Assembly: GCF_021272185.1 (NCBI RefSeq)
Contig: NZ_JAJSEC010000001.1
Span: forward strand, 1 to 64,000
Reading direction: 5' to 3'
DNA from: Roseivivax sp. GX 12232
GTDB taxonomy: Bacteria > Pseudomonadota > Alphaproteobacteria > Rhodobacterales > Rhodobacteraceae
DNA length: 64,000 bases
Part shown: piece after piece, positions 9,671 to 40,326 of the stretch
Layout of the letters: each line of letters begins with the position of its first letter
Position numbering within the stretch: the first letter of the stretch is position 1
The notes under the pieces: model-generated
Databases searched by the model: none
Seen by the model: the letters and a program-made list of their open reading frames with translations, nothing else
What the model was told of the DNA's origin: nothing
Translations under genes and position numbers: made by a program

Positions 9671-9840
9671 CTTGCGCCCGAATAGCACCGAAGGTGCCGG
9701 GCGCGCGCCGGACCGGCCCCTTGGGCCGGCGCTCCTTGGGGTGGCGTGCATAGCTCGTCGCTAGCCCTGAGCTTGCTGGGATTAAGTGCCCCGCTCAGAG
9801 CGCAGCAGCGCCGGCCCCCGGTCCGGTGCGCGCCCTCTGT
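9671..9840 (+). repeat. Structured palindromic repeat, copy A
   Basis: Starts TTGCGCCCGAATAGCACC. Mini-hairpin GCACC-GAA-GGTGC, then CCGGCCC-CTT-GGGCCGG. The left arm 9699-9733 is complementary to the right arm 9807-9835, giving a stem of about 28 bp around a ~70-base apex. At the apex the helix CTGACCT/AGGTCAG of the other copies is changed to CTGAGCT/AGCGCAG, one pair being exchanged on both sides. Confidence 0.85.
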
Positions 9841-10002
9841 TGGGAGTGTTGAGAGGGGGTTTGGGTCCCGGCCTCTTAGGGAGGATCAGCTCACTCAAAG
9901 GACGTCTCCAATCCGAAAGCCGCGCATGTGGCGTGGACGGGCAAGACATCTCGACGCCGCCCCCACAGGAGCTCTGGCCTTCACAGCACGGCCAGGCACC
10001 TC

Positions 10003-10172
10003 CTTGCGCCCGAATAGCATCGAAGATGCCGGGCGCGCGCCGGACCGGCCCTATGGGCCGGCGCTCCTTGGGATGGCGTGCTTAGCTCACAGCCAGCCCT
10101 GACCTTGTTGGGATAAAGTGCTGAGCTCGGAGGTCGGTTGCGACGGCCCCCGGTCCAGCGCGCGCCCTCTGT
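10003..10172 (+). repeat. Structured palindromic repeat, copy B
   Basis: Same layout and orientation as copy A. The first hairpin is GCATC-GAA-GATGC: both strands changed relative to GCACC/GGTGC, so pairing is kept. The second hairpin keeps CCGGCCC/GGGCCGG but has loop TAT. The apex helix is CTGACCT with AGGTCGG (one G-U pair). The right arm is 10141-10168. Confidence 0.85.
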
Positions 10173-10357
10173 CGGGAGGGATGAGAGGGGGTTGGGGGCG
10201 CGAACTCGGGTGAGCGGTCCGGCACGCTTCGGGCGGAGAGCGACGCTTGGCGACGCTACGTGTTCAGATGTGACTAAGGTGCCCTACCACCCAGGACGCC
10301 CCACCGTCTCCCGCGACGCCCCAACACTCCCAAACCAAGCCCCTTGCCCCCTCTCAA

Positions 10358-10395
10358 ACAAAAAAAAGACCCGGGCGCTCCACGCGCCCGGGCCC
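10358..10395 (-). terminator. Rho-independent terminator of the first BCCT gene
   Basis: On the minus strand a 9-bp stem CCCGGGCGC/GCGCCCGGG (10384-10392 with 10370-10378) is followed by a run of eight T. It lies about 30 bases beyond the stop of the BCCT gene at 10422. Confidence 0.9.
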
Positions 10396-10421
10396 AAAAG
10401 CCTCTCAGCTCACCCTGCCGC

Positions 10422-12065
10422 TCAGCGCGGCTCGGTGCGCAGGCCCTGCAGGGTCGACCAGCAGAGCACCAGCAGGATCAGCGTGAAGAAGATCCCGGTG
10501 GTGTTCACCATGGCCTGCAGCGCGGTCAGACCGCCGCCGATCAGGAGCACGATGGCCACCACGCCCTCGGTCGTTGCCCAGAACACCCGCTGCGCGGTGG
10601 GCGCCTCGGTCTTGCCGCCGGCGGTGATCGTGTCGATCACCAGCGAGCCCGAATCCGAGGAGGTGATGAAGAACACCAGCACCAGCACGATGCCCAGCGT
10701 CGAGGTGATCATCGTGAAGGGCAGATCGCCGAACATCGCGAACATGGCGATGGAGTCGTTATAGCTGCCGATCACGTTCTGGTAGACGCCGCTCTCGGTG
10801 CCCATCTCGATGACATGGCTGATCGCCGTGCCGCCGAAGGTGGCCATCCAGAAGACCGACACCAGGGTCGGGATCAGGATCACGCAGGTGATGAACTCGC
10901 GCACCGTGCGGCCGCGGCTCACACGGGCGATGAACATGCCCACGAAGGGCGACCAGGAGATCCACCAGGCCCAGTAGAACGAGGTCCAGCCCTGGCGGAA
11001 GCTGTCATCCTCGCGGCCCACCGGGTTCGACAGCGGGATCACGTCGCGCACATAGGTCGACAGGCCGGTCCAGAAGTCGCTGAGGATCTGCAGCGTCGGC
11101 CCCGCGATGAAGACGAAGAGCAGCAGCAGCCCGGCCAGGAACATGTTGAAGTTCGACAGGACCTTCACGCCGCCGTCGATGCCGCGCACCACCGAGATCA
11201 GCGCCACGGCGGTCACGCCGATGATCACGATGACCTGGGTGTTGAGCCCCTCGGGCAGGCCGAAGACGTAATGCAGACCCGAGGAGGCCTGCTGCGCGCC
11301 GAGACCCAGCGAGGTGGTCAGGCCGAAGAGCGTCGCGAATACCGCGGTGATGTCGATCACATGGCCGGTCCAGCCCCAGACGCGATCGCCGAGGAGCGGG
11401 TAGAAGGCCGAGCGGATCGAGAGCGGCAGCTGCTTGTTGTAGGTAAACAGCGCCAGCGACAGGGCGACCACCGCGTAGACCGACCAGGGGTGCAGACCCC
11501 AGTGGAAGATCGTCGCGGCCAGGCCATGGGCGCGCGCTTCGGCGACCAGCGCCTCGTTGACCGTGCCGTCCTCGGAGAGCGGCCCCTCGAGACCAAGCGG
11601 GCCCGAGACCTGCATGTGGTAGACCGGCTCGAGCACGCCGAAGAACATCAGGCCAATGCCCATGCCGGCAGCAAAGAGCATGGCGAACCACGACAGGTAG
11701 CCGAAGTCCGGCGTCGCCTCGGTGCCGCCCAGGCGCACGGTGCCCCAGGGGCTGACGATCAGCGCCAGGCAGAAGATCACGAAGATGTTCGCCGCCGACA
11801 GGAAGAACCAGTCGAAGGTCGTGGTCACGAATGTGAACAGCCAGTTGAACACCGCCGATGCCTGATCCTGGAAGATCAGCGTGACCAGCACGAAGGCCAT
11901 GGTGGTCAGCGAGGAAATCAGGAAGACGGGGTTGTGAATGTCGAAGACCAGCGGGCCGATCTTCTTTGTGACATTGTCCTGTCCGACCTCATAGGATGTG
12001 TCGATCGTGTCGACTTCTCCGTCGGGGCTTGGAATATCCAGCCCTTCCGATGACGTATCCGTCAT
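10422..12065 (-). CDS. BCCT family betaine/choline/carnitine transporter (copy 1)
   Basis: A 547-residue inner-membrane transporter of the BCCT family, with about 12 transmembrane segments, for quaternary-ammonium osmolytes such as glycine betaine, choline or perhaps DMSP. The substrate and ion motif FAAGMGIGLMFFGVLEP keeps the Gly that in BetP goes with sodium coupling. The family signature WWISWSPFVGMFIARVSRG is complete. The start at 12065 (MTDTSSEGLDI) has AAGGAGG about 9 bases upstream; a longer frame lacks this. It lies downstream of a second BCCT gene of identical length, with a terminator between, so it has its own promoter. The exact substrate is not readable from sequence. Confidence 0.9.
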   Translation of the reverse strand: MTDTSSEGLDIPSPDGEVDTIDTSYEVGQDNVTKKIGPLVFDIHNPVFLISSLTTMAFVLVTLIFQDQASAVFNWLFTFVTTTFDWFFLSAANIFVIFCLALIVSPWGTVRLGGTEATPDFGYLSWFAMLFAAGMGIGLMFFGVLEPVYHMQVSGPLGLEGPLSEDGTVNEALVAEARAHGLAATIFHWGLHPWSVYAVVALSLALFTYNKQLPLSIRSAFYPLLGDRVWGWTGHVIDITAVFATLFGLTTSLGLGAQQASSGLHYVFGLPEGLNTQVIVIIGVTAVALISVVRGIDGGVKVLSNFNMFLAGLLLLFVFIAGPTLQILSDFWTGLSTYVRDVIPLSNPVGREDDSFRQGWTSFYWAWWISWSPFVGMFIARVSRGRTVREFITCVILIPTLVSVFWMATFGGTAISHVIEMGTESGVYQNVIGSYNDSIAMFAMFGDLPFTMITSTLGIVLVLVFFITSSDSGSLVIDTITAGGKTEAPTAQRVFWATTEGVVAIVLLIGGGLTALQAMVNTTGIFFTLILLVLCWSTLQGLRTEPR

Positions 12066-12221
12066 GGACGATACCCTCCTTGCAGGTATGAGTGGATTTT
12101 TGCCTATCGCTTCACCTAGGGCCTCAGCCTCAAGGTCCAGCGAAAACCGCGAATTCGGCCCTTTAACGCGGTTCTGACCGGATGACACCCGGAAAACACG
12201 GGAAAATTCCCCGCAAAACGA

Positions 12222-12254
12222 CACCGCCCCGCATCGCTCGGATGCGGGGCGGTG
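12222..12254 (-). terminator. Terminator between the two BCCT genes
   Basis: A perfect 14-bp stem (12222-12235 with 12241-12254) with a 5-base loop, followed on the minus strand by TGTCGTTTTGC. It lies 53 bases past the stop of the BCCT gene at 12308 and so separates the two transporter genes. Confidence 0.8.
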
Positions 12255-12307
12255 GATGGTTTCCTGTCCGCGCGGGCCCTGTCACGGGCCCCTCGGAGGC
12301 GGCTGGC

Positions 12308-13951
12308 TCAGCCGCGTTTTTCGCTTTTGAGGCCCGCGATGATCGCCCAGCACATCAGAAGAAGCACGATGGTGAAGGGCAGCCCGGTGGAGATCACCAT
12401 GGCCTGCAGCGCGCTCAACCCGCCGCCCAGAAGCAGCACGATCGCCACCGCGCCTTCGAAGAGGCACCAGAAGACCCGCTGCGGCACCGGCGCGTCGATC
12501 TTGCCGCCGGCGGTGATCGTGTCGATCACCAGCGAGCCCGAGTCCGAGGAGGTGACGAAGAAGACGATCACCAAGATCACCGCGATGGTCGAGGTGATCG
12601 CCGCCATCGGCAGATCCGCCAGCATCCCGAAGAGCGACAGCTCCGGCGAGTAGCTGTCGATCACATTGGCCTTCACCTGGCTGGTCTCGGGGTTGGCGAG
12701 CACCTGTTCGATCGCCGTGCCGCCAAAGACCGCCATCCAGAGCACGCAGACCAGGCTCGGGATCAGGATCACGCAGGTGATGAACTCGCGCACCGTCCGG
12801 CCGCGGCTGACGCGGGCGATGAACATGCCGACGAAGGGCGACCAGGAGATCCACCAGGCCCAGTAGAAGGCCGTCCAGCCCTGGCGGTAGCTGTCATCCT
12901 CGCGCCCGACCGGGTTCGAGAGCGGCAGGAGATCCCGGCCGTAAGCCACGAGCCCCTGCCCGAAGTCGGTCAGGAGCACCAGCGTCGGCCCGGCCAGCAG
13001 CACGAAGAGCAGAAGCAGCGCGGCCACCACCATGTTGACCTCGGAGAGGACCTTCACCCCGCCGTCGAGCCCGCGCAGCACCGACACCAGTGCCACCACG
13101 GTGATCGCCACGATCAGCACCACCTGGCTGGTGACGGTATTGGGTACGCCGTAGACGAACTCGAGCCCCGCGACCGCCTGCTGCGCCCCGAAGCCCAGCG
13201 AGGTCGCGAGCCCGAAGAGCGTGGCGAAGACCGCCAGCGTGTCGATGATATGGCCGGTCCAGCCCCAGACCCGCTCTCCGAAGATCGGGTAGAAGGCCGA
13301 GCGGATGGTGAGCGGCAGCCCCTTGTTGTAGGTGAAAAGCGCCAGCGCCAGGGCGACGATGGCGTAGATCGCCCAGGGGTGCAGGCCCCAGTGGTAGATC
13401 GTCGCCGCCAGCCCCATGCGGGCCGCCGCCTCGACGTTCTCGGCGATGATCGAGCCGTCCTCGGCGATGGGCGAGGCCACGCCCAGGGGCTCCGAGATGG
13501 CCATGTGGTAGACCGGCTCCAGCACCCCGAAGAACATCAGCCCGATGCCCATGCCGGCGGCGAAGAGCATGGCGAACCAGCCCGCGTAGGTGAAATCCGG
13601 CGTCGCCTCGGTGCCGCCCAGCCGGACCGAGCCCCAGGGGCTGACGATCAGGAACAGGCTGAAGAGCACGAAGATATTGGCCGCCGAGAGGAAGAACCAG
13701 TCGAAGGTGCTGGTCAGCGCCGGGCGCAGCCAGCCGAAGAACTCGGTCGCCTGGGCCTGGAAGATCAGCGCGTAGAGGACAAACAGCACCACCGCCGCGC
13801 CGGAGATCACGAAGACCGGGTTGTGGATGTCGAAGCCGAAGGGCCCGACCTGGCCGTCGATGTTGTCCTGTCCGATGTCGTATTCGGTGTCGATGATGAC
13901 GGCGTGCCCCTCCGGTTCCGGCACGCCTTCGGCGACGTTCTGATCGGTCAT
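12308..13951 (-). CDS. BCCT family betaine/choline/carnitine transporter (copy 2)
   Basis: A 547-residue paralogue of the neighbouring gene, with the same order of motifs: AAGMGIGLMFFGVLEP, a WGWTGHIID stretch, NPVGREDDSYRQGW and WWISWSPFVGMFIARVSRG. The N-terminal ~45 residues and the region after residue ~440 differ most between the two. Start at 13951 (MTDQNVAEG) with GGGGAGGA upstream. Probably an osmolyte importer. The pair looks like an old tandem duplication, since the proteins have the same length but clearly different residues throughout; they may differ in substrate or affinity. Confidence 0.9.
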   Translation of the reverse strand: MTDQNVAEGVPEPEGHAVIIDTEYDIGQDNIDGQVGPFGFDIHNPVFVISGAAVVLFVLYALIFQAQATEFFGWLRPALTSTFDWFFLSAANIFVLFSLFLIVSPWGSVRLGGTEATPDFTYAGWFAMLFAAGMGIGLMFFGVLEPVYHMAISEPLGVASPIAEDGSIIAENVEAAARMGLAATIYHWGLHPWAIYAIVALALALFTYNKGLPLTIRSAFYPIFGERVWGWTGHIIDTLAVFATLFGLATSLGFGAQQAVAGLEFVYGVPNTVTSQVVLIVAITVVALVSVLRGLDGGVKVLSEVNMVVAALLLLFVLLAGPTLVLLTDFGQGLVAYGRDLLPLSNPVGREDDSYRQGWTAFYWAWWISWSPFVGMFIARVSRGRTVREFITCVILIPSLVCVLWMAVFGGTAIEQVLANPETSQVKANVIDSYSPELSLFGMLADLPMAAITSTIAVILVIVFFVTSSDSGSLVIDTITAGGKIDAPVPQRVFWCLFEGAVAIVLLLGGGLSALQAMVISTGLPFTIVLLLMCWAIIAGLKSEKRG

Positions 13952-14177
13952 GCTGTCCTCCCCTAGCCCTGTTGCAGGCGAGCGCCCCTCTCGAGGGTCC
14001 GCCGCTCTGGCGCGGTGGGCCCCGGAGGCGCCTTCCATGGCCGGGAAGCCTACCGGGTCGAATCGCTCTGTCCAGAAAAATGCTTAATCCCTAGGCATTT
14101 TGCTGGTGGGGGGACCGGGGAAATCGAGGCTGAGACGGCGGGTGTGGGGCGGGGGCACGTAGGGGTTGGCGCCCTCC

Positions 14178-14218
14178 GAAAAGCAGACCGCGCGCGACCA
14201 CATCGGCCACGCGCGGTC
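14178..14218 (-). terminator. Terminator of acuI
   Basis: A 9-bp stem GACCGCGCG/CGCGCGGTC (14186-14194 with 14210-14218) with a T-rich tail (TGCTTTT on the minus strand). It lies about 50 bases past the acuI stop. Confidence 0.65.
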
Positions 14219-14270
14219 CCGTAAGTCGCGCGGTTAGGCGGCTCTGGACCCGCCGCGGGCCCGCCCCCGC

Positions 14271-15263
14271 CTAGCTGCCGAGGTCGACCACGACCCGCCC
14301 GCGCACCTGGCCTTGCAGGATCTGCGCGCCGAGCTCGGGCAGGTCTTCCAGGGTCGCGGGGTGCACCATGGCCTCGAGCTTCTGCATCGGCAGGTCGCGG
14401 GCCACCCGCTGCCAGGCGCGCAGCCGGTTGTCATAGGGCTGCATCACGCTGTCGATGCCCAGGAGGTTCACCCCGCGCAGCAGGAAGGGGATGACCTTGG
14501 CGGGCAGATCCGCCCCGCCGGCGAGCCCCACCGCCGCGGCCGAGCCACCGTATTTCAGCTGCCCCAGAAGCCGCGCCAGCATCGGCCCGCCAACCGCGTC
14601 GACCGCGCCCGCCCAGCGCTCGCTCTCGAGCGGGCGCTTGGTGGTCTCGGCCAGCTCCTCGCGGGCCACGATCTCGGTGGCACCCAGATCCTTGAGGTAA
14701 TCCGCGCCCTCGGGCCGCCCGGTGACCGCCGCGACCTCGTGGCCGAGCTCGGCCAGGATCGCGGTCGCGACCGAGCCCACGCCGCCCGAGGCGCCGGTGA
14801 CCAGCACCGGCCCCTGCCCCGGCGTGAGCCCGTGATCCTCGAGCGCCATGACCGCCAGCATGGCGGTGAAACCCGCGGTGCCCACCGCCATGGCCTGGCG
14901 CGTGGTGAGCCCCTCGGGCAGCGGCACCAGCCAGTCGGCCTTGACCCGGGCCTTCTGGGCGTAGCCGCCCCAATGCGCCTCGCCGACGCGCCAGCCGGTC
15001 AGCACGACCTTGTCGCCGGGCGCGTAGCGATCGTCCGAGGACGCCTCGACCGTGCCCGCGAAATCGATGCCGGGCACATGGGGGTAGCTGCGCACCAGCC
15101 CGCCGCCGGGCCCGAGGCAGAGCCCGTCCTTGTAGTTCAGCGTGCTGTATTCGACCGCCACGGTGACCTCGCCCTCGGGCAGGTCCTCGGTGGCGATCTC
15201 GCGCAGCCCGGCGCTGGTCTTGCCGGTCTCCGCGTCCTTCTCGACGATCAGGGCCTTGAACAT
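14271..15263 (-). CDS. acuI: Acrylyl-CoA reductase (AcuI/YhdH family)
   Basis: A 330-residue zinc-independent medium-chain reductase that uses NADPH to reduce acryloyl-CoA to propionyl-CoA, in roseobacters a step that detoxifies the acrylate made from DMSP. The N-terminal catalytic domain has the YSTLNYKDGLC and VPGIDFAGTVE motifs. The Rossmann motif VLVTGASGGVGSVA comes near residue 150, and the C-terminal part has the YhdH-type KVIPFLLRGVNLLGIDS. Start at 15263 (MFKALIVEKD) with AGGAGG upstream; a longer frame overlaps the DinB gene. No dddL/dmdA-type gene is nearby, so the DMSP link is by family, not context. Confidence 0.9.
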   Translation of the reverse strand: MFKALIVEKDAETGKTSAGLREIATEDLPEGEVTVAVEYSTLNYKDGLCLGPGGGLVRSYPHVPGIDFAGTVEASSDDRYAPGDKVVLTGWRVGEAHWGGYAQKARVKADWLVPLPEGLTTRQAMAVGTAGFTAMLAVMALEDHGLTPGQGPVLVTGASGGVGSVATAILAELGHEVAAVTGRPEGADYLKDLGATEIVAREELAETTKRPLESERWAGAVDAVGGPMLARLLGQLKYGGSAAAVGLAGGADLPAKVIPFLLRGVNLLGIDSVMQPYDNRLRAWQRVARDLPMQKLEAMVHPATLEDLPELGAQILQGQVRGRVVVDLGS

Positions 15264-15340
15264 GGTGCCTCCTCCTTGTCGGTCGCGCCGCGCGGGGCCT
15301 CTCGGGGCCCGCGCGGGGTGGGGTTGGGTCGCGCCGCGGC

Positions 15341-15856
15341 TCAGGGCGCGTCGGCCTCCTCGGGCATGAAGACGAGGTCGCTGACCGGCGCCTTGGCGCC
15401 CGCCTCGGTCAGCATGGCGTGGATCTGGCCGCGGTGGTGGGTCTGGTGGTTGAAGAAATGCGTGACGCAGAGCGCCATGGGCCGGCTGACCTCGCGCCCC
15501 GCGACGCCGGAATACCAGCTGAGATCGCCCTGGAGCGCGGCGCTCTGCAGCCCCCGCGCCCAGTCGGTGAGCCGCGCGTCGAGCGCGGCGCGGGCGCGCT
15601 GTTGTTCCTCGAGGCTCGCGGTGAACTCCGGGCTCTCGGGGATACCGCCCTCGGGCAGCGGGCCCCCGGTGAAACGCGCGAGCCAGACCGTGTCGCCCCA
15701 GAGCAGGTGGTTCGCGGTCCGGAAGATCGAGCCGAAGAAGCCCGCGCCGGTGCTTTTCAGCCGCGCCTCGCCGAGCGCGCGGAAGGCCGCGCCGAGCTGG
15801 CGGTTCTGCCAGGCGTTGTAGCGCGCCATCTGCCGCACGTAGTCCGCGTCGATCAT
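15341..15856 (-). CDS. DinB family protein (metal-dependent four-helix bundle)
   Basis: A 171-residue protein of the DinB/YfiT-like fold, usually a cytoplasmic metal-binding enzyme (thiol transferase or hydrolase) of unclear substrate. His50 in TANHLLWGD and the closely spaced His residues in THFFNHQTHHRGQIHAML are the expected metal-ligand sites. Start ATG at 15856 with a GAGGCCG stretch upstream. It lies 77 bases upstream of acuI on the same strand, so the two could be cotranscribed. The function cannot be named. Confidence 0.82.
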   Translation of the reverse strand: MIDADYVRQMARYNAWQNRQLGAAFRALGEARLKSTGAGFFGSIFRTANHLLWGDTVWLARFTGGPLPEGGIPESPEFTASLEEQQRARAALDARLTDWARGLQSAALQGDLSWYSGVAGREVSRPMALCVTHFFNHQTHHRGQIHAMLTEAGAKAPVSDLVFMPEEADAP

Positions 15857-15960
15857 CAGCCGGCCTCCTCTGCCGCCGCCAATCGAGCAGCTTGCCGCGC
15901 CGCTGGCAAGACCGTCGAGGGTTTACGGCTTCTTTACCTTGAGGACGGAGGCTGGCGCCC

Positions 15961-16191
15961 ATGCCGCGTCTTTATGGTGCCCTCTCGCCCGAAGCCTGGA
16001 TGGCCGAGCTTTTTGGCTCGCAATCGGCCATCCGCGGCCAGGTGATCCGCCGCTCGCGCCGCGACGTGGAGCGTTACGCGGGCATGGATGCGCTCAAGGC
16101 CGAGGTGGCGCGGCGCGGCTACCGGGCGGTGGAGAACTCGGGCCAGGTGGTGATCTTCTGCAACCGCGCGCCGATCACGCGGCTGGTCTGA
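15961..16191 (+). CDS. Small conserved protein (76 aa)
   Basis: A 76-residue soluble basic protein beginning MPRLYGALSPEAW and ending in a beta-like GQVVIFCNRAPITRLV. I recall similar short proteins in many Rhodobacteraceae, sometimes misnamed phosphoribosylanthranilate isomerase; this one is far too short for that enzyme. No catalytic motif is seen. It is divergent from the DinB gene. Its TGA is directly followed by a perfect 9-bp inverted repeat, probably its terminator. Confidence 0.65.
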   Translation: MPRLYGALSPEAWMAELFGSQSAIRGQVIRRSRRDVERYAGMDALKAEVARRGYRAVENSGQVVIFCNRAPITRLV

Positions 16192-16211
16192 GGGTTCCGC
16201 ACGCGGAACCC
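16192..16211 (+). terminator. Perfect inverted repeat at the end of the 76-aa gene
   Basis: GGGTTCCGC (16192-16200), a 2-base loop, then GCGGAACCC (16203-16211), starting at the base after the stop codon. It is the first of five short perfect hairpins before ssrA. No T-run follows, so termination is likely but not certain. Confidence 0.5.
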
Positions 16212-16510
16212 TCGGGGAAATCCGACGCGGATTTTAGGGGGATGTTTGAGGGAATCGCTTTTGAGCGACCCGCGCGCCCCTGTTGGACGCGATGTCCGGC
16301 CGTCCACCCGCGGTGACCACCCGGTCCAAATGCCAGCTGAACCACCACGGCGCGTGAACCACCCGTCACAAAAGACTCCAAACCGCCACCACCCGCGCCC
16401 CCAGGTTTTCCGCGTCCGGAAAACCGCCCCGAAATCTCCGCGAGATTTCGACACCCCCTTTGCAAGCCCGCCGCAAACCCCTATCTTCCCAAGTGTTCCG
16501 GAAACGGAAC
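16212..16510. repeat. Cluster of short perfect hairpins before ssrA
   Basis: No gene here. Four more perfect inverted repeats follow the one at the end of the 76-aa gene: AAATCCG/CGGATTT (16218-16234), GGTTTTCCG/CGGAAAACC (16404-16425), CGAAATCTC/GAGATTTCG (16430-16450) and GTTCCG-GAAA-CGGAAC (16495-16510). All have 3-4 base loops and most share a CCG/CGG closing end. They may be remnants of one mobile hairpin family, or processing and promoter elements for ssrA. Confidence 0.65.
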
Positions 16511-16810
16511 TATGGACATAAACGCGCTCGTAATAAGCGGATCGGACCCGGGGGCGGTACCCGGCGGCTCCACCAAACACCCTTCGTTGGGGGGATCCTG
16601 GGGCCGAAACAGGATCGACGAACGTGTAAAGGGGTAGCTTTGTCCCGGTGAGGTACCACCGTTATCGGTCCGTAAAGCATAATTGCCAACGACAATCGTG
16701 CTCCGGTCGCTCTCGCAGCCTAATGCTGCGCGAAAGACCGAAATCTTAAGTCCAGTCCTCTAGCAAGGGCTGGCGGGGTTCGCAGGCACCTGGCAACAGA
16801 AGCCTGCATT
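16495..16810 (+). ncRNA. ssrA: tmRNA, circularly permuted two-piece gene
   Basis: tmRNA rescues stalled ribosomes. Here the order of the halves is reversed, as in alphaproteobacteria. The acceptor part comes first: a T-arm-like stem-loop near 16547-16562 followed by GGCTCC and ACCA, ending at 16575. After a ~24-base spacer the coding part starts at 16600 with GGGGCC, which pairs with GGCTCC, followed by the tRNA-like GAAACAGGATCGACG. The tag frame 16685-16723 reads ANDNRAPVALAA then TAA. A GCAGGC/GCCTGC hairpin at 16782-16807 closes the gene. Exact 5' and 3' ends are estimates. Confidence 0.93.
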
Positions 16811-16938
16811 TCAATACAATATGGGATGTTTGATGGCGCTGACGGGTGCATTGCGCCGGGCTATGCAAGCTGCGTGGTCACGCCGGGGGCGGGCCGAGCG
16901 TTTTGCCATCCGACCCAAAGCTCCAGCCGCAACGCGCC

Positions 16939-21995: not shown

Positions 21996-22003
21996 GCGGG
22001 CGC

Positions 22004-25905: not shown

Positions 25906-25913
25906 GCTGAAGA

Positions 25914-27785: not shown

Positions 27786-27840
27786 ATGCGGCGTGGGTCC
27801 TAACGGTTGGTCGTCACGGGCGAAGCTCTGGTCGGCTGGG

Positions 27841-28485: not shown

Positions 28486-28495
28486 TTCTGTCTCC

Positions 28496-29281: not shown

Positions 29282-29293
29282 CTCGCCGGCCCC

Positions 29294-32172: not shown

Positions 32173-32272
32173 CGCCTCCGCCCGCGGCCCGAGGGAAATT
32201 AGCCCGCCCCGCCCCCTTTTCCTCGGCTCGAAAACCAATATCATCGGGGCACAGCTTGCCGAAGGAACCCCC

Positions 32273-32746
32273 ATGTCCCGTGGAATCGACTACGGAAACC
32301 TGATGCACGAGGCCATGCGCGGCCTGATCCAGAAGGTGCTGATCGGTGTGGCCGAGCGCGGATTGCCCGGCGACCACCATTTCTTCATCACCTTCGACAC
32401 CGCGCATCCCGACGTGGAGCTGGCCGACTGGCTGTCGGACCGCTACCCCGGCGAGATGACCGTGGTCATGCAGCATTGGTTCGACGCGCTCGAGGTCACC
32501 GACGAGGGCTTCTCGGTCACGCTGAACTTCGGCGAGGCGCCGGAGCGGCTTTATATCCCCTACGACGCGATCAAGACCTTCGTGGACCCCTCGGTCGAGT
32601 TCGGGCTGAAGTTCGAATCCCCCGACGATCGCGACGACGGCGACGACGGGCCGGGCCAGGAGGCCGCCGACGAGGACGCCGAGGACGAGGCGCCCGAGGA
32701 TCACAAGGACGCCGAGATCGTCAGCCTCGATTCCTTCCGGAAGTGA
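32273..32746 (+). CDS. sspB: SspB-family ClpXP adaptor
   Basis: A 157-residue cytoplasmic adaptor of the alphaproteobacterial SspB type that hands ssrA-tagged proteins to ClpXP. The N-terminal ~115 residues are the tag-binding domain (DYGNLMHEAMRGLIQKVL, FFITFDTAHPDV, RLYIPYDAIKTFVDPSVEFGL). An acidic, disordered linker follows, ending in EIVSLDSFRK, the likely ClpX-binding tail. ATG at 32273 with GAAGGAA upstream. It fits the ssrA gene in the same window, whose tag ends in LAA. Confidence 0.92.
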   Translation: MSRGIDYGNLMHEAMRGLIQKVLIGVAERGLPGDHHFFITFDTAHPDVELADWLSDRYPGEMTVVMQHWFDALEVTDEGFSVTLNFGEAPERLYIPYDAIKTFVDPSVEFGLKFESPDDRDDGDDGPGQEAADEDAEDEAPEDHKDAEIVSLDSFRK

Positions 32747-32887
32747 GCGCGAGGGGGCCGCTTGGCCGCCCCCGCCTCTCACACCACAGCCCTGCCGCCC
32801 GCACCCCGATGCCGCCCCGCTCTTGGCCTTCGCGCCTCGGGCGGCTAAAGCGCATGCGAGTGTATACCGATCGCGAAAGGATGCCCC

Positions 32888-34282
32888 ATGAGTGAGACCC
32901 GCACCGAGACCGACAGCTTCGGCCCGCTCGACGTTCCCGCCGAGAAATACTGGGGCGCCCAGACCCAGCGCTCGATCATGAACTTCCCCATCGGCTGGGA
33001 GCGCCAGCCGGTGCCGATCATCCGCGGCCTCGGCGCGATCAAGAAGGCCTGCGCCCTGACCAACGTCGAGCTCGGCAACATGCAGGCCGAGATCGGCGAG
33101 GCCATCGCCGCCGCAGCGCAGGAGGTCATCGACGGCAAGTTCGACGACAACTTCCCGCTGGTGGTCTGGCAGACCGGCTCGGGCACCCAGTCGAACATGA
33201 ACGCCAACGAGGTGATCTCGAACCGCGCGATCGAGATGCTGGGCGGCGAGAAGGGCTCGAAAAGCCCGGTGCACCCGAACGATCACTGCAACATGGGCCA
33301 GTCCTCGAACGACACCTTCCCGACCGCCATGCATGTGGGCATCGGCCTGCAGGCGCGCGACGTGCTGCTGCCGGGCCTGCGCAAGCTGCTCGCCGCGCTG
33401 GTCGCCAAGTCCGAGGATTTCGCCGAGATCATCAAGATCGGCCGCACCCACACCCAGGACGCCACGCCGCTCACGCTGGGCCAGGAGTTCTCGGGCTACG
33501 CCCACCAGGTCGCCAAGGGCATCGAGCGTGTCGAGGCCTGCCTGCCCGACATCTACGAGCTGGCCCAGGGCGGCACCGCGGTCGGCACCGGGCTCAACAC
33601 CAGGAAGGGCTGGGACGCCAAGGTCGCGGCCCGCATCGCCGAGATCACCGGCCTGCCCTTCGTCACCGCGCCGAACAAGTTCGAGGCGCTGGCCGCGCAT
33701 GACGCCATGGTGATGTTCTCGGGTGCGCTGAAGACCGTGGCGGCTTCGCTCTTCAAGATCGCCAACGACATCCGGCTTCTGGGCTCGGGCCCGCGCTCGG
33801 GGCTGGGCGAGCTGATCCTGCCGGAGAACGAGCCCGGCTCCTCGATCATGCCCGGCAAGGTCAACCCGACCCAGGCCGAGGCGCTGACCATGGTCTGCGC
33901 CCATGTCATGGGCAATGACGCAGCGGTGGGATTCGCGGGCTCTCAGGGGCATTTCGAGCTCAACGTCTACAACCCGATGATGAGCTACAACGTGCTGCAA
34001 TCGATGCAGCTTCTGGGCGACAGCGCCGCGGCCTTCACCGACAACATGGTCGCCGGCATCGAGGCCAACGAGTCGCGGATCGGCGAGCTGATGCGCAACT
34101 CGCTGATGCTGGTCACCGCGCTGGCGCCGACGATCGGCTACGACAACGCCACCAAGGTCGCCAAGACCGCGCATAAGAACGGCACGACGCTGAAGGAAGA
34201 GGCGATCGCACTGGGCTTCGTGGACGCGGAGACCTTCGACCGCGTGGTGCGGCCCGAGGAGATGATCGGCCCGAAGGAGTGA
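32888..34282 (+). CDS. fumC: Class II fumarate hydratase
   Basis: A 464-residue, iron-independent homotetrameric enzyme that converts fumarate and malate in the TCA cycle. [24 protein letters not shown] is the family N-terminus in outline; [31 protein letters not shown] and the fumarase signature [11 protein letters not shown] are all intact. Length is usual. ATG at 32888. It stands alone, 141 bases after sspB. Confidence 0.96.
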
Positions 34283-34556
34283 GGGTCTGCCGGGGCCGGG
34301 TCGTTGGTGGGGTCCGGCCCCGGGTGGTTTGAGGGGGATGGCGGTGAGGTTTGCCGGGTTGCGCTTGGGGTGACGTTTGAGCGTGCGGCGGGCTTGGGGC
34401 GCGACTTGTGGCGTCTGATCTGACACCGCACGGCACGTCATTGGACACCTCCCCCGCTGCGTCCCATAGCCCACGGTCGGGAAAACCCCCAGCCTGCCCC
34501 GTTCACCGCCAGCCCCACCTCAATCGATACGCCAAACATTCGCTTCCCTCGCGCCC

Positions 34557-34728
34557 CTTGCGCCCGAATAGCACCGAAGGTGCCGGGCGCGCGCCGGACC
34601 GGCCCCTTGGGCCGGCGCTCTTGTGGGCGAAGCGCATAGCATGCCCCTAGTCCTGACCTTGCTGGGATAAAGCGCCTCGCTCAAAGGTCAGAAGCGCCGG
34701 CCCCCGGTCCGGTGCGCGCCCTCTGTTG
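34557..34728 (+). repeat. Structured palindromic repeat, copy C
   Basis: Same order as copies A and B: GCACC-GAA-GGTGC, CCGGCCC-CTT-GGGCCGG, apex helix CTGACCTT/AAGGTCAG extended by one A-T pair, and a right arm at 34693-34722 complementary to the left arm. It lies about 275 bases after fumC. Confidence 0.85.
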
Positions 34729-34762
34729 TGCGGGCTGTTGGCGGGGATAGCGTCGGCGTCCG

Positions 34763-34943
34763 GCCCTGACCACTAAAGGTTGGGCTCTGGCCGCTAGGCG
34801 GCGGGCTCTGGCCGCTAGGCGGCGGGCACTGGCCGCTAGGGGGCGGGCACTGGCCACTAGCGGCCAGTGCTATGACCACAAGGGGTTAGGCAATGGCCGC
34901 TTGGGGTTGGGCTCTGGCCACGCGGGGTCGGACACTGACCACA
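34763..34943. repeat. 21-bp tandem repeat, eight units
   Basis: Units start at 34763, 34784, 34805, 34826, 34847, 34869, 34890 and 34911, with a partial ninth. The core is CTGGCCGCTAGGCGGCGGG with drift. One unit is 22 bases long. The boundary of units five and six makes an almost perfect 24-base palindrome (34847-34870, arms GCACTGGC/GCCAGTGC). On the minus strand the array is open in one frame and would encode a Ser-Gly-Gln-Pro heptad, which I take as a by-product. Confidence 0.8.
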
Positions 34944-35078
34944 TCGGAGATTGCGCCCTCCGCAATCGTCACCGTCACCGCAACCCTCAGCGCCAAGCGC
35001 CAATCCCACGTCCAACCACCCCCAACCACCCTCACCACCCCTTCCGCTCCCCTGCCTGCCCGCCTAAACTCCCCGCCC

Positions 35079-35252
35079 ATGAGCAAGGTCACCAACCTCA
35101 AGGCCGCCCGGAAGGCCCGCGCGCGGGCGGAGAAGCGGCAGCAGGGCGACGAGAACGCCCGCGCCTTCGGCCGCAGCAAGGCCGAGAAGACCCGCGAGGC
35201 GGCGGAGCGCGAGAAGGCCCGGCGCGACCTCGACGGGCACCGGCGCGAATGA
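35079..35252 (+). CDS. DUF4169 family small protein
   Basis: A 57-residue, very basic and charged helical protein (MSKVTNLKAARKARARAEK, ending DLDGHRRE), matching the DUF4169 family of Rhodobacterales. Function unknown. ATG at 35079. Its TGA overlaps the ATG of the next gene (ATGA), and the two families are found together, so they are probably translationally coupled and may act together. Confidence 0.8.
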   Translation: MSKVTNLKAARKARARAEKRQQGDENARAFGRSKAEKTREAAEREKARRDLDGHRRE

Positions 35253-35476
35253 GCGACCGGCCCGCGAAACGCTCGCTGACGCTGCGCGGGCACCGGACCT
35301 CGGTCTCGCTCGAGGAGGACTTCTGGCAGGAGTTCCGCGCCATCGCCCGGCGCGAGGGCAAGCCGGTCAACGCGCTGGCGGTCGAGATCGACGCCGAACG
35401 GGGTCTCGAGACCGGGCTGGCCTCGGCGATCCGGCTTTACGTGCTGCGCGACCTCAAGGGGCGGTCAGGCGGGTAA
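35249..35476 (+). CDS. Ribbon-helix-helix domain protein
   Basis: A 75-residue protein with a ribbon-helix-helix fold: the beta strand KRSLTLRGHRTSVSLEEDFW and helices FRAIARREGKPVNALAVEID and LASAIRLYVLRDLKG. Likely a small DNA-binding protein. The start at 35249 overlaps the DUF4169 stop. Target unknown. Confidence 0.8.
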   Translation: MSDRPAKRSLTLRGHRTSVSLEEDFWQEFRAIARREGKPVNALAVEIDAERGLETGLASAIRLYVLRDLKGRSGG

Positions 35477-35702
35477 GACGCGGGGCGGAGTGCGGGAAGG
35501 GGCGAGACAGAGGGCGGGCCTGGGTCAGAATGGCCGCCCAAGCCAGCGCTGCGCGACGCTCCGGCCAACGGCCCGCAGGGCCGCAAGCCCGAAGGCCCCC
35601 TATGAACCCGCAGAGCGCTGCAAGCGCCCGGACCTCCTGCAAGGGTCTAATCTTCCCGCAAGCGCCCCAACCTCAAGCCTCGGCGCCCCACACCCCAAAC
35701 AC

Positions 35703-36410
35703 CTACTGCCGGATCTCGAACACCATCGAGACCTGCGCGCTGATCCCCGTCTCGCCGCGCGCCACCGGGACCGCGCCGTCGGCGGCCATGCGCATCTCGG
35801 CCATGGGCACCGGGCCGGGATAGCCGCCGCCCTGCTCCGAGAGCGACAAGACCCGCCCGAGCGTCACCCCCGCGGCCTCGGCGTATAGCTCGGCCCGGGC
35901 GCGGGCGTCGGCCACCGCCTCGCGGCGCGCGGCCTCGAGAAGCGGCTCGGGATCGGCCAGCCCGAAGGAGAGCCCCGAGAGCTGGTTCGCCCCGTCGCCG
36001 GTCACTGCCCCCAGAACTTCGCCCAGCCGGTCGAGATCGCGCACACGGACAGACAGCGTGTTCGAGGCCCGGAAGCCGCGGATCTCGGGCGGCCCGTCGG
36101 AGTTGCGACGGTCGCTGTAGACCGGGTTCAGCGAGAGGTTCGAGGTCTGCACGTCGCGCTCCTCGATCTCGAACCCCGCGAGCCGCTCGAGGATCCGCGC
36201 GGCGACCTCCGAGGTCTGATCCAGCGCCGCCTCGGCGCTCTCGGCCTCGGCCATGACGCCCAGCGTCACCGTCGCCATGTCGGGCACCGCGCGGGCCTCG
36301 CCCTCGCCGCTGACCGAAAGCCGGGCGACGGGCGGATCCCCCGCCTCCTGAGCCGAGAGCGGCAGGGCCAGGCAGGCCAGGGCCAGGACGGGAGCGATGA
36401 GACGGATCAT
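35703..36410 (-). CDS. SIMPL domain (DUF541) periplasmic protein
   Basis: A 235-residue protein with a signal peptide (MIRLIAPVLALACLALPLSAQ) and a SIMPL/DUF541 domain: LSVSGEGEARAVPDMATVTLGV near residue 30 and the C-terminal ARAELYAEAAGVTLGRVLSLSE. Relatives include the periplasmic oxidative-stress protein YggE. Start ATG at 36410 behind GGAGG; the frame stays open upstream but over the divergent gene. It is divergent from the 1114-residue protein gene, 159 bases away. Confidence 0.88.
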   Translation of the reverse strand: MIRLIAPVLALACLALPLSAQEAGDPPVARLSVSGEGEARAVPDMATVTLGVMAEAESAEAALDQTSEVAARILERLAGFEIEERDVQTSNLSLNPVYSDRRNSDGPPEIRGFRASNTLSVRVRDLDRLGEVLGAVTGDGANQLSGLSFGLADPEPLLEAARREAVADARARAELYAEAAGVTLGRVLSLSEQGGGYPGPVPMAEMRMAADGAVPVARGETGISAQVSMVFEIRQ

Positions 36411-36569
36411 GGATGCCTCCTTGCGGGCGGTGGGGTCTGCCGTCACTCTCGGGCCAAGCGCGGGGCGGCGCAAGCCGCGCCGGCGGATATCGGCGCGCCC
36501 TGGCGGAGAGGCGTGCCCCGAGACGACTGCAGACTCCCATGAGTGCCTGAGCGATGCTAAGAGTGCCCC

Positions 36570-39500
36570 ATGAAACCTGAATTCGCCCTGAACCTGTCCT
36601 TCGACGGCATCACCCTCCTGCGCCGGGTGCGCGGCGGCTGGGCGATCCTCGGCGAGGCGGCGCTCGACGGCGACATGGCCCGCGAGATGGCCTGGCTGCG
36701 CGAGGCCGCGGCGGCGGCGCCCCATGGCACCGAGGTCAAGCTGATCCTGCCCGAGGACCAGATCAAGTTCCTCGACCGCGAGGCCGGCGGCGCGCCCGAG
36801 ACCGCGGCCCGCGCGGCGCTCGAAGGCGCGACGCCCTACCCGGTCGCCGAGCTGCGCATCGACGCCGAGGAGACCGGCGGACGGCTGCATGTCGCCGCCG
36901 TGGCCGAGGAGACCCTGGCCGAGGCCGAGGCCTTCGCGCTGGAACACGGCTTCCAGCCGGTGGGCTTCGTCGCGGCCAAGGGCAACGGCTTCGGCCGCGA
37001 GGTGGTCTTCGGGCCTGCGCAGAGCTGGACCGGCAAGGCGCTGACGCCGGAGAGCGCCGGGCTGAAGATCGTGCCGATGCCGGAGGGGGTGGAGGCGTCT
37101 GGTGCGGCTACCGCCGAGGCAAAGGCAGATGCGGCGGCTGGTGTTTCTGACGTCGAGGCCGCAGCGGATGCGTCGGCTGACGCCGAAGCAGCGCCGGATG
37201 CGGCGGCTGGCGAGGCGGATGCGGCCCCATCGCAGAGCCACGCCGATGCCGCGCAGGACGATGCACTTGCCCCGGAGATACCGGAGCAGGCCCCCATCGC
37301 CGAAGCCGCCGCTTCAGAAGAATTTGAAGACACGCCCGAAGCCGCGGAAAACGATCAACCTATCGACGAGCCGGAAGCGGCGACTGGTGACGCCTTGGCG
37401 TCGGATTCTCCTGAAGACGTGCCCGAGGCAGCTCTCGCAAAGACCTCTGACGTAGAGCCGACGCCAGCCCGCCCCGTGTCCGCCGACCAGGAAAGCGCGG
37501 CGGAGCCCGAGCCCGAGGTCTCTCCCGCGCCCACGCCGGCCCCCTCAGAAGCGGAGACCAAAGCCAAGGAGGCCCCCGAGCCGGCGCAGGCCTCCTTCGC
37601 CTTCCAGAGCACCCGCAGCCGCGAGGAGGCGGGCGAGAGCCCGCGCGCGCCGCTGAGGGCCAACCCCGAGGACCGCCCCGCCGGGCGTCTCTCGCTGAGC
37701 AAGACCCCCAAGCGCAAGGCCCCGGCGGCACCGAAGAAACCCGCCGCGAAGAAAGCTTCCGAGGGCCCCGCGACGCCCGCGCCGGATCTCGAGGCGAGCC
37801 TCTCGCGCCCCGATCCCGCGCCGCCCCGGCGCTCGGAGCGCCGGTCGGACGCCACACCGCCGCTGCGCGCCGAGCGGCCCTCCGATGCGACCCCGCGCGA
37901 TCCAGCGGAGCCCGGCTCCGAGGCCAAGCCCGCGCGCGCGTCCCGCGCCGCCCCGGTGCCGCCCGCGCGGCCCGGGCGGTCGGCGGAGCCCGGCCCGCAG
38001 CTCTCCAAGCCCTCGGGACAGGCCCCCGCGCCGCGCGCCGGGGCAGGCGACGACATCCCACCGGCCCCGCGCCGCTCGGGGGCTGAAGCCCAGCCGCCCC
38101 GGCCCGAGGCCCAAGCCGAGCCCCCCGTCGCGCCGCTGCGCCCCGCCGCAGCGGCACAGGGCGAAGGCCGCCGAGACACCGCGCCTCAGGCGCCGCAGCG
38201 CCCGCAAGGCCGCGCCCCCCAGGCCGAGGACCACCCCGCCGAGCGCCCACCGCTCAGCGCACGGGACCGGATCGCCGCGCTGCGCCCGGGCACCGAAGCG
38301 CCCGCGGGCACGGCGGTCGACACGCCCGCGCTTGCGGCGGGCCTCGCCGCCTTCTCGGGCTCGCGCCGCGACGACCCGGCGGAGGCGCCGGGCCCCGAGG
38401 CCGCGCAAAACCTGCCGCGCGGCACCCGCCCCGGGGTCGGCAGCTTCTTCGCCCGCAAGCCGCGCATCGACCCCGAGAAAGCCGCCGAGGAAGAGCGCAT
38501 GACCGTCTTCGGCGCGCGCCGGAAGGACGGCTATGTCGGCGGCAAGCCGCGCTACCTGGGCCTGATGCTGACCTCGGCGCTGCTGGTCTTCCTCCTGGGG
38601 GTCGCGGCCTGGGCCTCGGTCTTCCTCGAGGACGGCATCGCGCGGTTCTTCCGCGAGACGCCCGAGAGCGCGGTCGCGAGCCTGACGCCTTCCGAGGACC
38701 TGCCCGCCCTGCCGCTCGAGACCAGCGCCCGGCCCGCGGCGCGGCCTGCCCCGGCGCCCGAGGCGGACCCGGTCCGCGAAGCCCGGCTCGAGACCGGGGC
38801 GGAGACCGACGCCGCCCGGAGCCCCGCGCCCGAGAGCCCCGAGACTTCCGAGGAGACCGGCGAGGAGACCGCCCCCGAGGCCCCGGCGGCCCTGCCAGAG
38901 GCGCCCGCCGAGGCCCCGCCCCGCCTGCTCTCGCCCGAGGAGGCCGAGGCCACCTATGCCGCGACCGGCATCTGGCAGCGCGCGCCGGGCGCGCCCGCCG
39001 AGATCGCGGGCGAGGAGTCGGGCGACCCCTATGTCGCCTCGATCGACCCGGAGGTGCCGCAGTTCGACGCCACCGCCCTGCCCGAGGTCGCGGCCGCGCC
39101 CGACAGCGCCCCGGCCTCGCTGCCGATCCCGGCGCCCGCGGGCACGCCCTTCGACCTCGACGATCGCGGGCTGGTGCGGGCCACCCCCGAGGGCGCGGTG
39201 AACCCCGATAGGGTGCGCATCTTCGCGGGGCTGCCGCCGGCGGTGCCGCCCCGGCGCGGCGCGGCGCTGGCGCCGCTGATGGAGGCGATCCCCGAGCGCG
39301 GCGACGGCTCGCGCCCGGCCCCGACCGAGATCTTCAACCGCGTGCAAGAAAGCAGCGGCCTGCGCCCCTCGGCCCGGCCCGAGGACCTGCAGGAACAGAA
39401 CGACCGCGCCAATCTCGCGGGCTTCTCGCGGAGCGAACTGGCGGCCTTCCGGCCCGAGCTCCGCCCCGAGAACGCCAAGGACGAGTTGGAGGCCGACCGC

Positions 39501-39914
39501 AGCGCCACCGCCCAGGCGGTCGAGACCTCGAACCGGCCAAGCGGGCGGCCCGGCAATATCGCCGCCATCGTCGCCGCCGTGGAGGCCAGCCGCGCCGCCG
39601 CGCCCGCGCCCGCGCAAGCGCAGCAGGTCGCCCAGGCCGCGCCCCGCACCGTGGCGCCGAGCGTGCCCTCCAACACCTCGGTCAGCCGCGCGGCGACCGA
39701 GGAGAACGCGCTGAACCTGCGCCGGATCAACCTGATCGGGGTTTACGGCAACGAGTCGAACCGCCAGGCGCTGGTGCGGCTCGGCAACGGGCGCTACGTG
39801 AAGGTCGGCGTCGGAGACCGGCTCGACGGCGGGCGCGTCTCGGCCATCGGCGAGAGCCAGCTGCGCTACGTGAAGGGCGGGCGCAACATGACGCTGGAGA
39901 TGCCGCGGGGGTAA
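36570..39914 (+). CDS. Large single-pass membrane protein with PilM/GspL-like and GspC/PilP-like ends
   Basis: A 1114-residue protein. Residues 1-140 (LNLSFDGITLLRRVRGGW, VKLILPEDQIKFLDRE, ALEGATPYPVAELRID) resemble the actin-like cytoplasmic domain of PilM/GspL. Then about 500 residues rich in Ala, Pro, Glu and Arg, probably disordered. One transmembrane helix (LGLMLTSALLVFLLGVAAW) lies near 662-682. A second low-complexity stretch follows. The last 65 residues (LIGVYGNESNRQALVRLGN, KVGVGDRLDGGRVSAIGE) look like the periplasmic HR/PilP fold. No other secretion or pilus gene is near. The name IF-2-like that such proteins sometimes get only reflects composition. Confidence 0.72.
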   Translation: MKPEFALNLSFDGITLLRRVRGGWAILGEAALDGDMAREMAWLREAAAAAPHGTEVKLILPEDQIKFLDREAGGAPETAARAALEGATPYPVAELRIDAEETGGRLHVAAVAEETLAEAEAFALEHGFQPVGFVAAKGNGFGREVVFGPAQSWTGKALTPESAGLKIVPMPEGVEASGAATAEAKADAAAGVSDVEAAADASADAEAAPDAAAGEADAAPSQSHADAAQDDALAPEIPEQAPIAEAAASEEFEDTPEAAENDQPIDEPEAATGDALASDSPEDVPEAALAKTSDVEPTPARPVSADQESAAEPEPEVSPAPTPAPSEAETKAKEAPEPAQASFAFQSTRSREEAGESPRAPLRANPEDRPAGRLSLSKTPKRKAPAAPKKPAAKKASEGPATPAPDLEASLSRPDPAPPRRSERRSDATPPLRAERPSDATPRDPAEPGSEAKPARASRAAPVPPARPGRSAEPGPQLSKPSGQAPAPRAGAGDDIPPAPRRSGAEAQPPRPEAQAEPPVAPLRPAAAAQGEGRRDTAPQAPQRPQGRAPQAEDHPAERPPLSARDRIAALRPGTEAPAGTAVDTPALAAGLAAFSGSRRDDPAEAPGPEAAQNLPRGTRPGVGSFFARKPRIDPEKAAEEERMTVFGARRKDGYVGGKPRYLGLMLTSALLVFLLGVAAWASVFLEDGIARFFRETPESAVASLTPSEDLPALPLETSARPAARPAPAPEADPVREARLETGAETDAARSPAPESPETSEETGEETAPEAPAALPEAPAEAPPRLLSPEEAEATYAATGIWQRAPGAPAEIAGEESGDPYVASIDPEVPQFDATALPEVAAAPDSAPASLPIPAPAGTPFDLDDRGLVRATPEGAVNPDRVRIFAGLPPAVPPRRGAALAPLMEAIPERGDGSRPAPTEIFNRVQESSGLRPSARPEDLQEQNDRANLAGFSRSELAAFRPELRPENAKDELEADRSATAQAVETSNRPSGRPGNIAAIVAAVEASRAAAPAPAQAQQVAQAAPRTVAPSVPSNTSVSRAATEENALNLRRINLIGVYGNESNRQALVRLGNGRYVKVGVGDRLDGGRVSAIGESQLRYVKGGRNMTLEMPRG

Positions 39915-40326
39915 GGCGGCGCGGGGCGTGGTTGGTTGAGCGCTTCTACCGGACGCACCTCCGCCAATACACCCGGCACGCCGCTCGCAACTCTTAGCCC
40001 CTAATTCTTTGCTAAAGCCTCACAGCCGCGCAAATCGCAGCCCGAGATCCAGAGTTCACAGCCCTCTGAACTGAAGCCGCCCCCGCTCCCTCTCCACCAG
40101 CCCCACCAGAGGGCGCGCGGCGGACCGGGGGCCGGCGCTGCTGACCTCTGAGCTACGCACTTTATCCCAACAAGGTCAGGGCTCGCTGTGAGCTAAGCAC
40201 ACCAACCCAAGGAGCGCCGGCCCATCGGGCCGGTCCGGCGCGCGCCCGGCACCTGCGGTGCTGTTCGGGCGCAAGAAGGGGGTGGTGCAAGTGAGTGCCA
40301 CGCGGGGTTCCCGGTCCCGCCCCCCC
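39915..40326. other. Convergent intergenic stretch with an inverted copy of the repeat
   Basis: About 410 bases between the 1114-residue gene and hpd, which converge. It contains the fourth copy of the structured element in opposite orientation and nothing else that I recognise. Confidence 0.6.
40107..40275 (-). repeat. Structured palindromic repeat, copy D (inverted)
   Basis: On the minus strand: GCACC-GCA-GGTGC, then CCGGCCC-GAT-GGGCCGG, the apex helix CTGACCT/AGGTCAG (40150-40190 region), and the right arm at 40107-40140. The loop triplets differ from the other copies while the stems are kept. A 6-bp AGCTCA/TGAGCT pair lies around the apex. Confidence 0.85.

What the first reader, a model, noticed from the sequence alone, without database searches (positions are those of the whole stretch)
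9671..40275. Four-copy ~170-bp structured element with compensatory base changes
Seen: copies at 9671-9840, 10003-10172, 34557-34728 and, inverted, 40107-40275, all between genes. Each has a mini-hairpin GCAYC-GNA-GRTGC, a hairpin CCGGCCC-NNN-GGGCCGG and a long-range stem joining its ends. Stems are constant and loops vary (CTT, TAT, CTT, GAT). Copy B changes both sides of the first stem (GCATC/GATGC for GCACC/GGTGC); copy A exchanges a pair in the apex helix. Inference: selection keeps the structure, so this is a structured RNA family or a REP/MITE-like element.
Basis: partly seen in the sequence, partly recalled or inferred. Interest (0 to 1): 0.8.

Follow-up and report, generated by a model that had tools for sequence, protein, structure and literature searches.

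The report
Hairpin repeat family of Rhodobacteraceae
A 165-base DNA element that folds into a long hairpin is scattered through the spaces between genes of this marine bacterium and many of its relatives; it looks like a small mobile DNA parasite, but the enzyme known to move similar elements was not found.

Summary
The four copies belong to a family with at least 150 full-length copies in this genome; 136 of 141 cores read are exactly 165 bases long. Relatives turn up in 71 of 149 genomes of the family, taken to be Rhodobacteraceae. In a sample of the class, 140 of 142 genomes have none, and the two with a match are of this family. On 24 further genera, a 29-pair long-range stem is 93% paired and 18 pairs changed on both sides.

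The copies look like non-autonomous mobile DNA. They are intergenic, and one site is empty in six of six informative relatives. Nearby copies point the same way, in 35 of 35 pairs from three genomes. They resemble REPINs, but no RAYT-type transposase was found in nine Roseivivax genomes, a GTAG/CGTC tag is not conserved, and no fixed-register target duplication was seen. An RNA role on the described strand is not supported; the other strand stays open. The moving enzyme is unknown. New variant of a known kind.

The parts
9671..9835 (+). copy A, 165-base core
9674..9704 (+). copy A 5' hairpin: GCGCCCG / CGGGCGC outer stem, AATA bulge, GCACC-GAA-GGTGC inner stem with C(GNA)G triloop
9699..9716 (+). 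copy A left arm 1 of the long-range stem (pairs with 9818-9835)
9723..9733 (+). copy A left arm 2 of the long-range stem (pairs with 9807-9817)
9778..9788 (+). copy A apical motif GGGATTAAGTG (family consensus GGATAAAGCGC)
9807..9835 (+). copy A right arms of the long-range stem
9836..9866 (+). copy A loosely conserved G-rich tail
10003..10167 (+). copy B core; with A a direct doublet, 332 bases start to start
10168..10198 (+). copy B G-rich tail
34557..34721 (+). copy C core
34722..34752 (+). copy C G-rich tail
40111..40275 (-). copy D core; this site is empty in the six informative same-genus relatives
40080..40110 (-). copy D G-rich tail

Best explanation
A family of non-autonomous mobile DNA elements that works like a REPIN or hairpin-ended MITE. 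The element is kept because, as single-stranded DNA, it folds into a 5' hairpin with an asymmetric bulge plus a 29-pair stem, and a trans-acting enzyme recognises this folded form and copies or moves it into intergenic DNA. Shown: the conserved fold, the nearly fixed length, the dispersal, one lineage-specific site, the direct-orientation doublets and that no Y1 (RAYT-type) domain was found in the genus. Inferred: that the recognised form is single-stranded DNA, that movement is by an enzyme acting in trans, and that this enzyme is not of the Y1 type in these genomes. The conserved ATAAAGCGC of the apical part is my guess for a recognition or joining site.
For: At least 150 full-length copies, E from 4.8e-40 to 4.5e-34 (only 150 of 9127 candidates were scored). 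136 of 141 cores are exactly 165 bases. 0 of 141 overlap a called gene. Site of copy D: six of six informative relatives have 56-111 bases between the flanking matches where this genome has 476-515 (two of eight relatives were not informative). Eight gene families beside copies in several genera were looked at: the element lies on different sides and strands of them, i.e. mostly separate insertions. Long stem: 90.7% paired on 48 sequences, 19 of 29 pairs with two-sided change; 24 further genera 93.1% against 78.0% shuffled and 32-45% slid, 18 pairs. No sign of RNA wobble on this strand. Inner loop is C(GNA)G in 134 of 136 own copies and 54 of 64 others; this is a very stable DNA mini-hairpin type (recalled; one search is a listing only). 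Neighbouring copies point the same way in 23 of 23 pairs here and 12 of 12 in G042 and G112. Ten of ten solo 5' hairpins point the same way as the nearby element.
Against: No transposase or autonomous copy was found: no Y1 domain in this or eight other genomes of the genus, no link to Y2, no nuclease among the 14 largest protein clusters beside copies. No target-site duplication in fixed register. The gain at copy D is about 400-450 bases, not a clean 165-200, so the mobile unit is not defined. Doublet members are on average no more alike than random copies (0.883 to 0.873), which fits poorly with recent tandem duplication, although 5 of 19 pairs lie above the 95% point of random pairs. A-C mismatches exceed G-U pairs across genera (31 to 13), which would fit an RNA on the other strand. 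The sequences that show the covariation were themselves found with models that reward the stem. Direction follows GC skew here (27 of 34 at |skew| >= 0.02) and in G017 (17 of 20, hand tally), but not in G073 (4 of 8, same calls) nor in six more genomes together (44 of 79; G112 alone 7 of 7), so a general replication link is not supported.
Confidence: 0.58

Rival explanations
1. A multi-copy structured non-coding RNA, most likely read from the strand opposite to the one described.
For: Strong covariation over many genera, a conserved ATAAA motif in the apical part (121 of 136 own copies, 34 of 40 and 23 of 24 elsewhere) and nearly fixed length look RNA-like. A-C mismatches exceed G-T ones across genera (31 to 13; 19 to 9); on the other strand these would be G-U pairs.
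Against: Within this genome the two are about equal (28 G-T to 22 A-C). No Rfam match at the elements. No clear orientation preference to neighbouring genes (33 of 141 copies between two genes running the element's way, 43 between two running the other way). Compensatory changes fix the inner hairpin to a three-base loop, so the stable UUCG RNA tetraloop does not form in register on the other strand (my reasoning). 150 or more near-identical RNA genes would be unusual.
Confidence: 0.17
2. A chromosomal DNA site with a host function (nucleoid protein binding, replication or segregation signal), spread by selection rather than selfishly.
For: Orientation follows GC skew in this genome (27 of 34), in G017 (17 of 20) and in G112 (7 of 7); no copy overlaps a called gene, and convergent gene pairs are preferred (47 of 141 copies against 4 of 36 element-free gaps).
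Against: No such bias in G073 (4 of 8), G042 (11 of 22), G150 (14 of 24), G091 (5 of 11), G096 (3 of 8) or G123 (4 of 7). With the genome-specific model, copy number in one genus goes from at least 150 to none found in 3 of 9 genomes. 78 of 149 family genomes show no match (stricter filters).
Confidence: 0.12
3. True REPIN/BIME elements moved by a RAYT transposase that was lost or missed.
For: Two inverted arms forming a hairpin, a bulged hairpin, solo hairpins, tandem clusters: REPIN or REP features in PMC3116915 and PMC8266576 (passages). Two of 24 relatives do have a Y1 domain, G015 and G023, and both carry the element.
Against: No Y1 domain found in 9 of 9 genomes of the genus. GTAG or GTGG stands before the 5' hairpin in 2 of 141 own copies and 3 of 59 others, CGTC in 5 of 141 and 2 of 59. 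The GI REPINs of PMC3116915 have 71 bases between their invariant 16-mers; this core is 165.
Confidence: 0.1
4. Transcription terminators or mRNA-stabilising hairpins at gene ends.
For: Enriched between convergent genes.
Against: No run of five T within 35 bases after the core on either strand, 0 of 141 copies; found between divergent genes too (18 of 141) and in either direction between genes that run the same way; a hairpin with a T run lies beside copy D (read by eye).
Confidence: 0.03

Closest known systems
REPINs / BIMEs with RAYT (TnpA-REP)
   Same: Dispersed intergenic, inverted arms that fold in single-stranded DNA, bulged hairpin, solo remnants, tandem clusters (PMC3116915, PMC8266576, PMC6006769; passages read).
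   Different: No RAYT-type gene found in the genus, no conserved GTAG/CGTC tag, longer (165-base core against 71 bases between 16-mers in GI REPINs), an asymmetric 5' hairpin plus long stem, conserved apical motif, one architecture across the family, doublet members mostly not near-identical.
Bacterial MITEs
   Same: Short, non-coding, high copy, lineage-specific, long inverted arms (general knowledge).
   Different: No fixed-register target-site duplication, no related transposon recognised, strand-asymmetric, and arms change by compensation between genera.
Alphaproteobacterial intergenic repeats (RIME, CIR; recalled, not read)
   Same: Long imperfect palindromes between genes in Alphaproteobacteria.
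   Different: Not compared by sequence here; recalled from Rhizobiales and Caulobacter, whereas this family was found only within its own family.
IS200/IS605 ends
   Same: Subterminal hairpins recognised as single-stranded DNA (PMC6006769, passages); no target duplication (recalled).
   Different: No Y1 transposase found, no conserved guide tetranucleotide, and replication-strand bias not general.

Membership tests
REPIN/RAYT | two inverted REP arms forming a hairpin | tested here: met
   long-range stem, (arms are not REPs by their tag)
REPIN/RAYT | GTAG (or CGTC) tag 5' of the palindrome | tested here: not met
   GTAG/GTGG 2 of 141 own and 3 of 59 others; CGTC 5 of 141 and 2 of 59
REPIN/RAYT | RAYT (Y1) gene in the genome | tested here: not met
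   none in 9 genomes of the genus; 2 of 24 relatives have a Y1 domain, both with the element
REPIN/RAYT | cleavage by the cognate enzyme | not testable with these tools
   needs biochemistry
MITE (DDE type) | target-site duplication | tested here: not met
   best score 3.8, shuffles 3.5-4.1; tests duplications at a fixed distance only
MITE (DDE type) | dispersed, lineage-specific non-coding copies | tested here: met
   (empty site tested at one locus)
MITE (DDE type) | parent transposon with the same ends | tested here: inconclusive
   none recognised in the clusters shown; no genome-wide search was made
structured RNA family | covariation supporting the stem | tested here: met
structured RNA family | G-U pairs tolerated on the RNA strand | tested here: inconclusive
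   not met for the strand described; the other strand stays open
structured RNA family | transcription | not testable with these tools
   no RNA-seq
any Rfam family | match to a curated covariance model | tested here: not met
   window, gathering; 8 loci, E up to 5: three weak matches, none at an element

The most novel reading that the evidence does not exclude
A class of hairpin mobile DNA of its own, old in Rhodobacteraceae and present in about half of its sampled genera, that spreads as folded single-stranded DNA by an enzyme unlike RAYT or the known Y1/Y2 transposases, and that preferentially lands beside an existing copy in the same direction, building direct doublets of narrow spacing.
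Probability: 0.3. Interest if true: 0.78.

Novelty: new variant of a known kind. Interest (0 to 1): 0.6.

Why it matters
REPINs are the textbook case of tiny hairpin DNA that lives off a host-encoded transposase. Here is a family with at least 150 copies in a 4.1-Mb genome and matches in 71 of 149 sampled genera of its bacterial family, and no such enzyme was found in the genus. It gives a clean search target (which gene tracks copy number?) and a covariance model that stayed silent in 140 of 142 genomes of the class. The direct doublets, 35 of 35 in one direction, are a mechanistic clue that random insertion does not give.

Tried and rejected
RAYT: not found in the genus. IS91-type Y2: no link (2 of 10 element-rich genomes, 2 of 10 genomes without a match; its 14 control genomes gave none). 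Local hairpins instead of the long stem: 80.1% paired against 76.6% shuffled; three of five measures exceed all 500 shuffles, but only 5 of 14 pairs change on both sides (shuffles 4.5) and four pairs fail in nearly half of the rows or more. Copy-specific complementarity of flanks: suspected by eye, not borne out; direct similarity of left and right flank was slightly above cross-copy (p 0.011), probably from doublets. A mirrored GC/AT skew on both sides looked like part of the element in all gene contexts, but element-free gaps of 300-500 bases show it too (14 gaps), so it was dropped. Replication-strand orientation: found here, then in G017, then failed in six of seven further genomes, G112 being the exception. 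Tandem duplication as the origin of all doublets: see the 5 of 19 above; some spacers are homologous. Conserved position next to certain genes: sides and strands differ in the eight families examined; G005 and G007 share a site; a few rows are unreliable because the element position was a default. RNA tetraloop UUCG on the other strand: register does not allow it. Alignment A5 had two rows with wrong coordinates and was replaced by A6. A plasmid BLAST of copy C gave nothing. Papers: searches listed, by title and start of abstract, nothing that describes this family; passages only were seen in PMC12306157, PMC6006769, PMC8266576 and PMC3116915, and in PMC3733652 a term search that found none of its terms.

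Full report
What is there. The four copies were read and aligned. Each has a 165-base core and a G-rich tail of about 31 bases that is conserved only loosely.

Copy number. BLAST found 46 matches, one of them short; a covariance model found 150, all matching model positions 1-170, E from 4.8e-40 to 4.5e-34. That search scored only 150 of 9127 candidates, and other searches list copies outside the 150, so 150 is a lower bound. I fetched stretches around most of them and read 141 copies: 136 cores have 165 bases, four 166 and one 164. Ends are conserved and the apical part varies (1.89, 1.38 and 1.90 bits per position for left, middle and right).

Structure. The core has a 5' hairpin (outer stem GCGCCCG/CGGGCGC, a bulge, inner stem with a C(GNA)G loop) and a long-range stem of 18 + 11 pairs around an apical region with ATAAAGCGC. 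On 48 sequences from 10 genomes the long stem is 90.7% paired, against 77.0% with shuffled partners and 36-43% with slid partners; 19 of 29 pairs change on both sides. On 24 genera not used to build any model it is 93.1% paired, with 18 two-sided pairs, and 0 of 500 shuffles reach any of the five measures (the row of this window was included as the 25th). These sequences were found with models that score the stem, which favours paired ones; the slid and shuffled controls do not remove that. The alternative of two local hairpins reaches 80.1% against 76.6%. Within this genome alone covariation is thin: 2 of 34 pairs. In many genera the outer stem of the 5' hairpin also changes by compensation, for example GCGCGG/CCGCGC, CGCCCGG/CCGGGCG and GGACCGG/CCGGTCC (per-sequence list; not counted formally).

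DNA or RNA. If the described strand were an RNA, G-U pairs should exceed A-C mismatches. They do not: 28 to 22 in 136 own copies, 13 to 31 in 48 sequences, 9 to 19 in 24 further genera. Ten tRNAs from the same loci give 13 to 0 (ARAGORN favours paired stems, so this control leans). The excess of A-C could mean an RNA on the other strand or a mutation bias. The inner loop is C(GNA)G in 134 of 136 own copies and in 54 of 64 others by a relaxed pattern (47 of 64 by an automatic fold). That C(GNA)G is a very stable DNA loop I recall; one search shows only a listing of papers on GCGAAGC hairpins.

Places. None of 141 copies overlaps a called gene. Contexts, doublet members counted singly: 47 convergent, 33 + 43 codirectional, 18 divergent. 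Convergent pairs are enriched, 47 of 141 against 4 of 36 gaps without the element (the gene caller is my own, trained on the window). At copy D eight relatives were asked. Six have both flanks on one contig with 56-111 bases between the matches, where this genome has 476-515; G002 and G003 were not informative. The gain exceeds core and tail by some 200-250 bases, so the mobile unit is not delimited. This was done at one site only.

Doublets. Of the 150 copies, 23 pairs lie within 1 kb, start to start 253-371 bases, and no spacing falls between 371 and 2225; all 23 point the same way. In stretches taken around copies of six other genomes 12 of 12 steps (234-376 bases) do too; all 12 are in G042 and G112, the other four genomes showed none (of 94 hits, three low-scoring ones that overlap a better hit on the other strand were dropped). 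The listings show four more same-way pairs (G006, G007, G017, G161) and one short opposite partial match beside a copy in G023. Members of a pair are on average no more alike than random copies (0.883 to 0.873, 19 pairs), but 5 of 19 lie above the 95% point of random pairs. Several spacers are homologous. Ten solo 5' hairpins were found in the fetched stretches, all in the direction of the nearby element.

Spread. The pan-family model finds it in 71 of 149 genomes of the family, this one included, one genome per genus (stricter filters). In a class sample of 142 genomes only this genome and one of the same family match (of the 140 without a match 20 are listed, all of other families, and 120 rows were not shown). 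In the genus, 6 of 9 genomes match the genome-specific model at E <= 0.01.

Enzyme. No Y1 transposase was found in this genome or in eight others of the genus; 2 of 24 relatives have one, G015 and G023, and both carry the element. Y2 is in 2 of 10 element-rich and 2 of 10 element-free genomes. A clustering of 842 proteins near copies shows no recurrent nuclease among the 14 largest clusters; the recurrent ones look like housekeeping genes by my reading, without an annotation search. No target duplication in fixed register.

Orientation. In this genome element direction follows GC skew in 27 of 34 places where |skew| is at least 0.02 and 66 of 98 overall, doublets counted once. G017 agrees, 17 of 20 (hand tally of positions against skew). 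G073 does not (4 of 8, listed copies only), and six more genomes give 44 of 79, with G112 alone 7 of 7. I therefore do not build on it.

Verdict. A real family of structured, dispersed intergenic DNA that my searches did not find described. It works like a REPIN but fails two defining tests of that family (tag, RAYT), so I file it beside them, not with them.

Noticed in passing
window 34778-34942: Tandem repeats of 21 bases (GGGCACTGGCCGCTAGGCGGC, 4 copies, and a related weaker array) right after copy C.
   Followed up: partly
window 36570-39914 (+): 1114-aa reading frame with no NCBIfam match (E <= 1e-5) or Pfam match (E <= 0.001); its last part is similar beside the hpd gene in relatives.
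   Followed up: partly
own-genome intergenic regions of 300-500 bases: First third is G/T-rich and last third C/A-rich on the + strand, with the element (18 gaps) or without it (14 gaps). Unexplained.
   Followed up: partly
L056 about 1671-1936 (- strand): Three direct copies of a roughly 60-base mini-element (5' hairpin plus a short palindrome) upstream of a full copy (one of them also).
   Followed up: no
L014:1823-1897 (+): Compact form of the element: 5' hairpin and arms without the apical part, 322 bases downstream of a full copy's start.
   Followed up: no
window 16455-16810 (+): Alphaproteobacterial permuted tmRNA.
   Followed up: no
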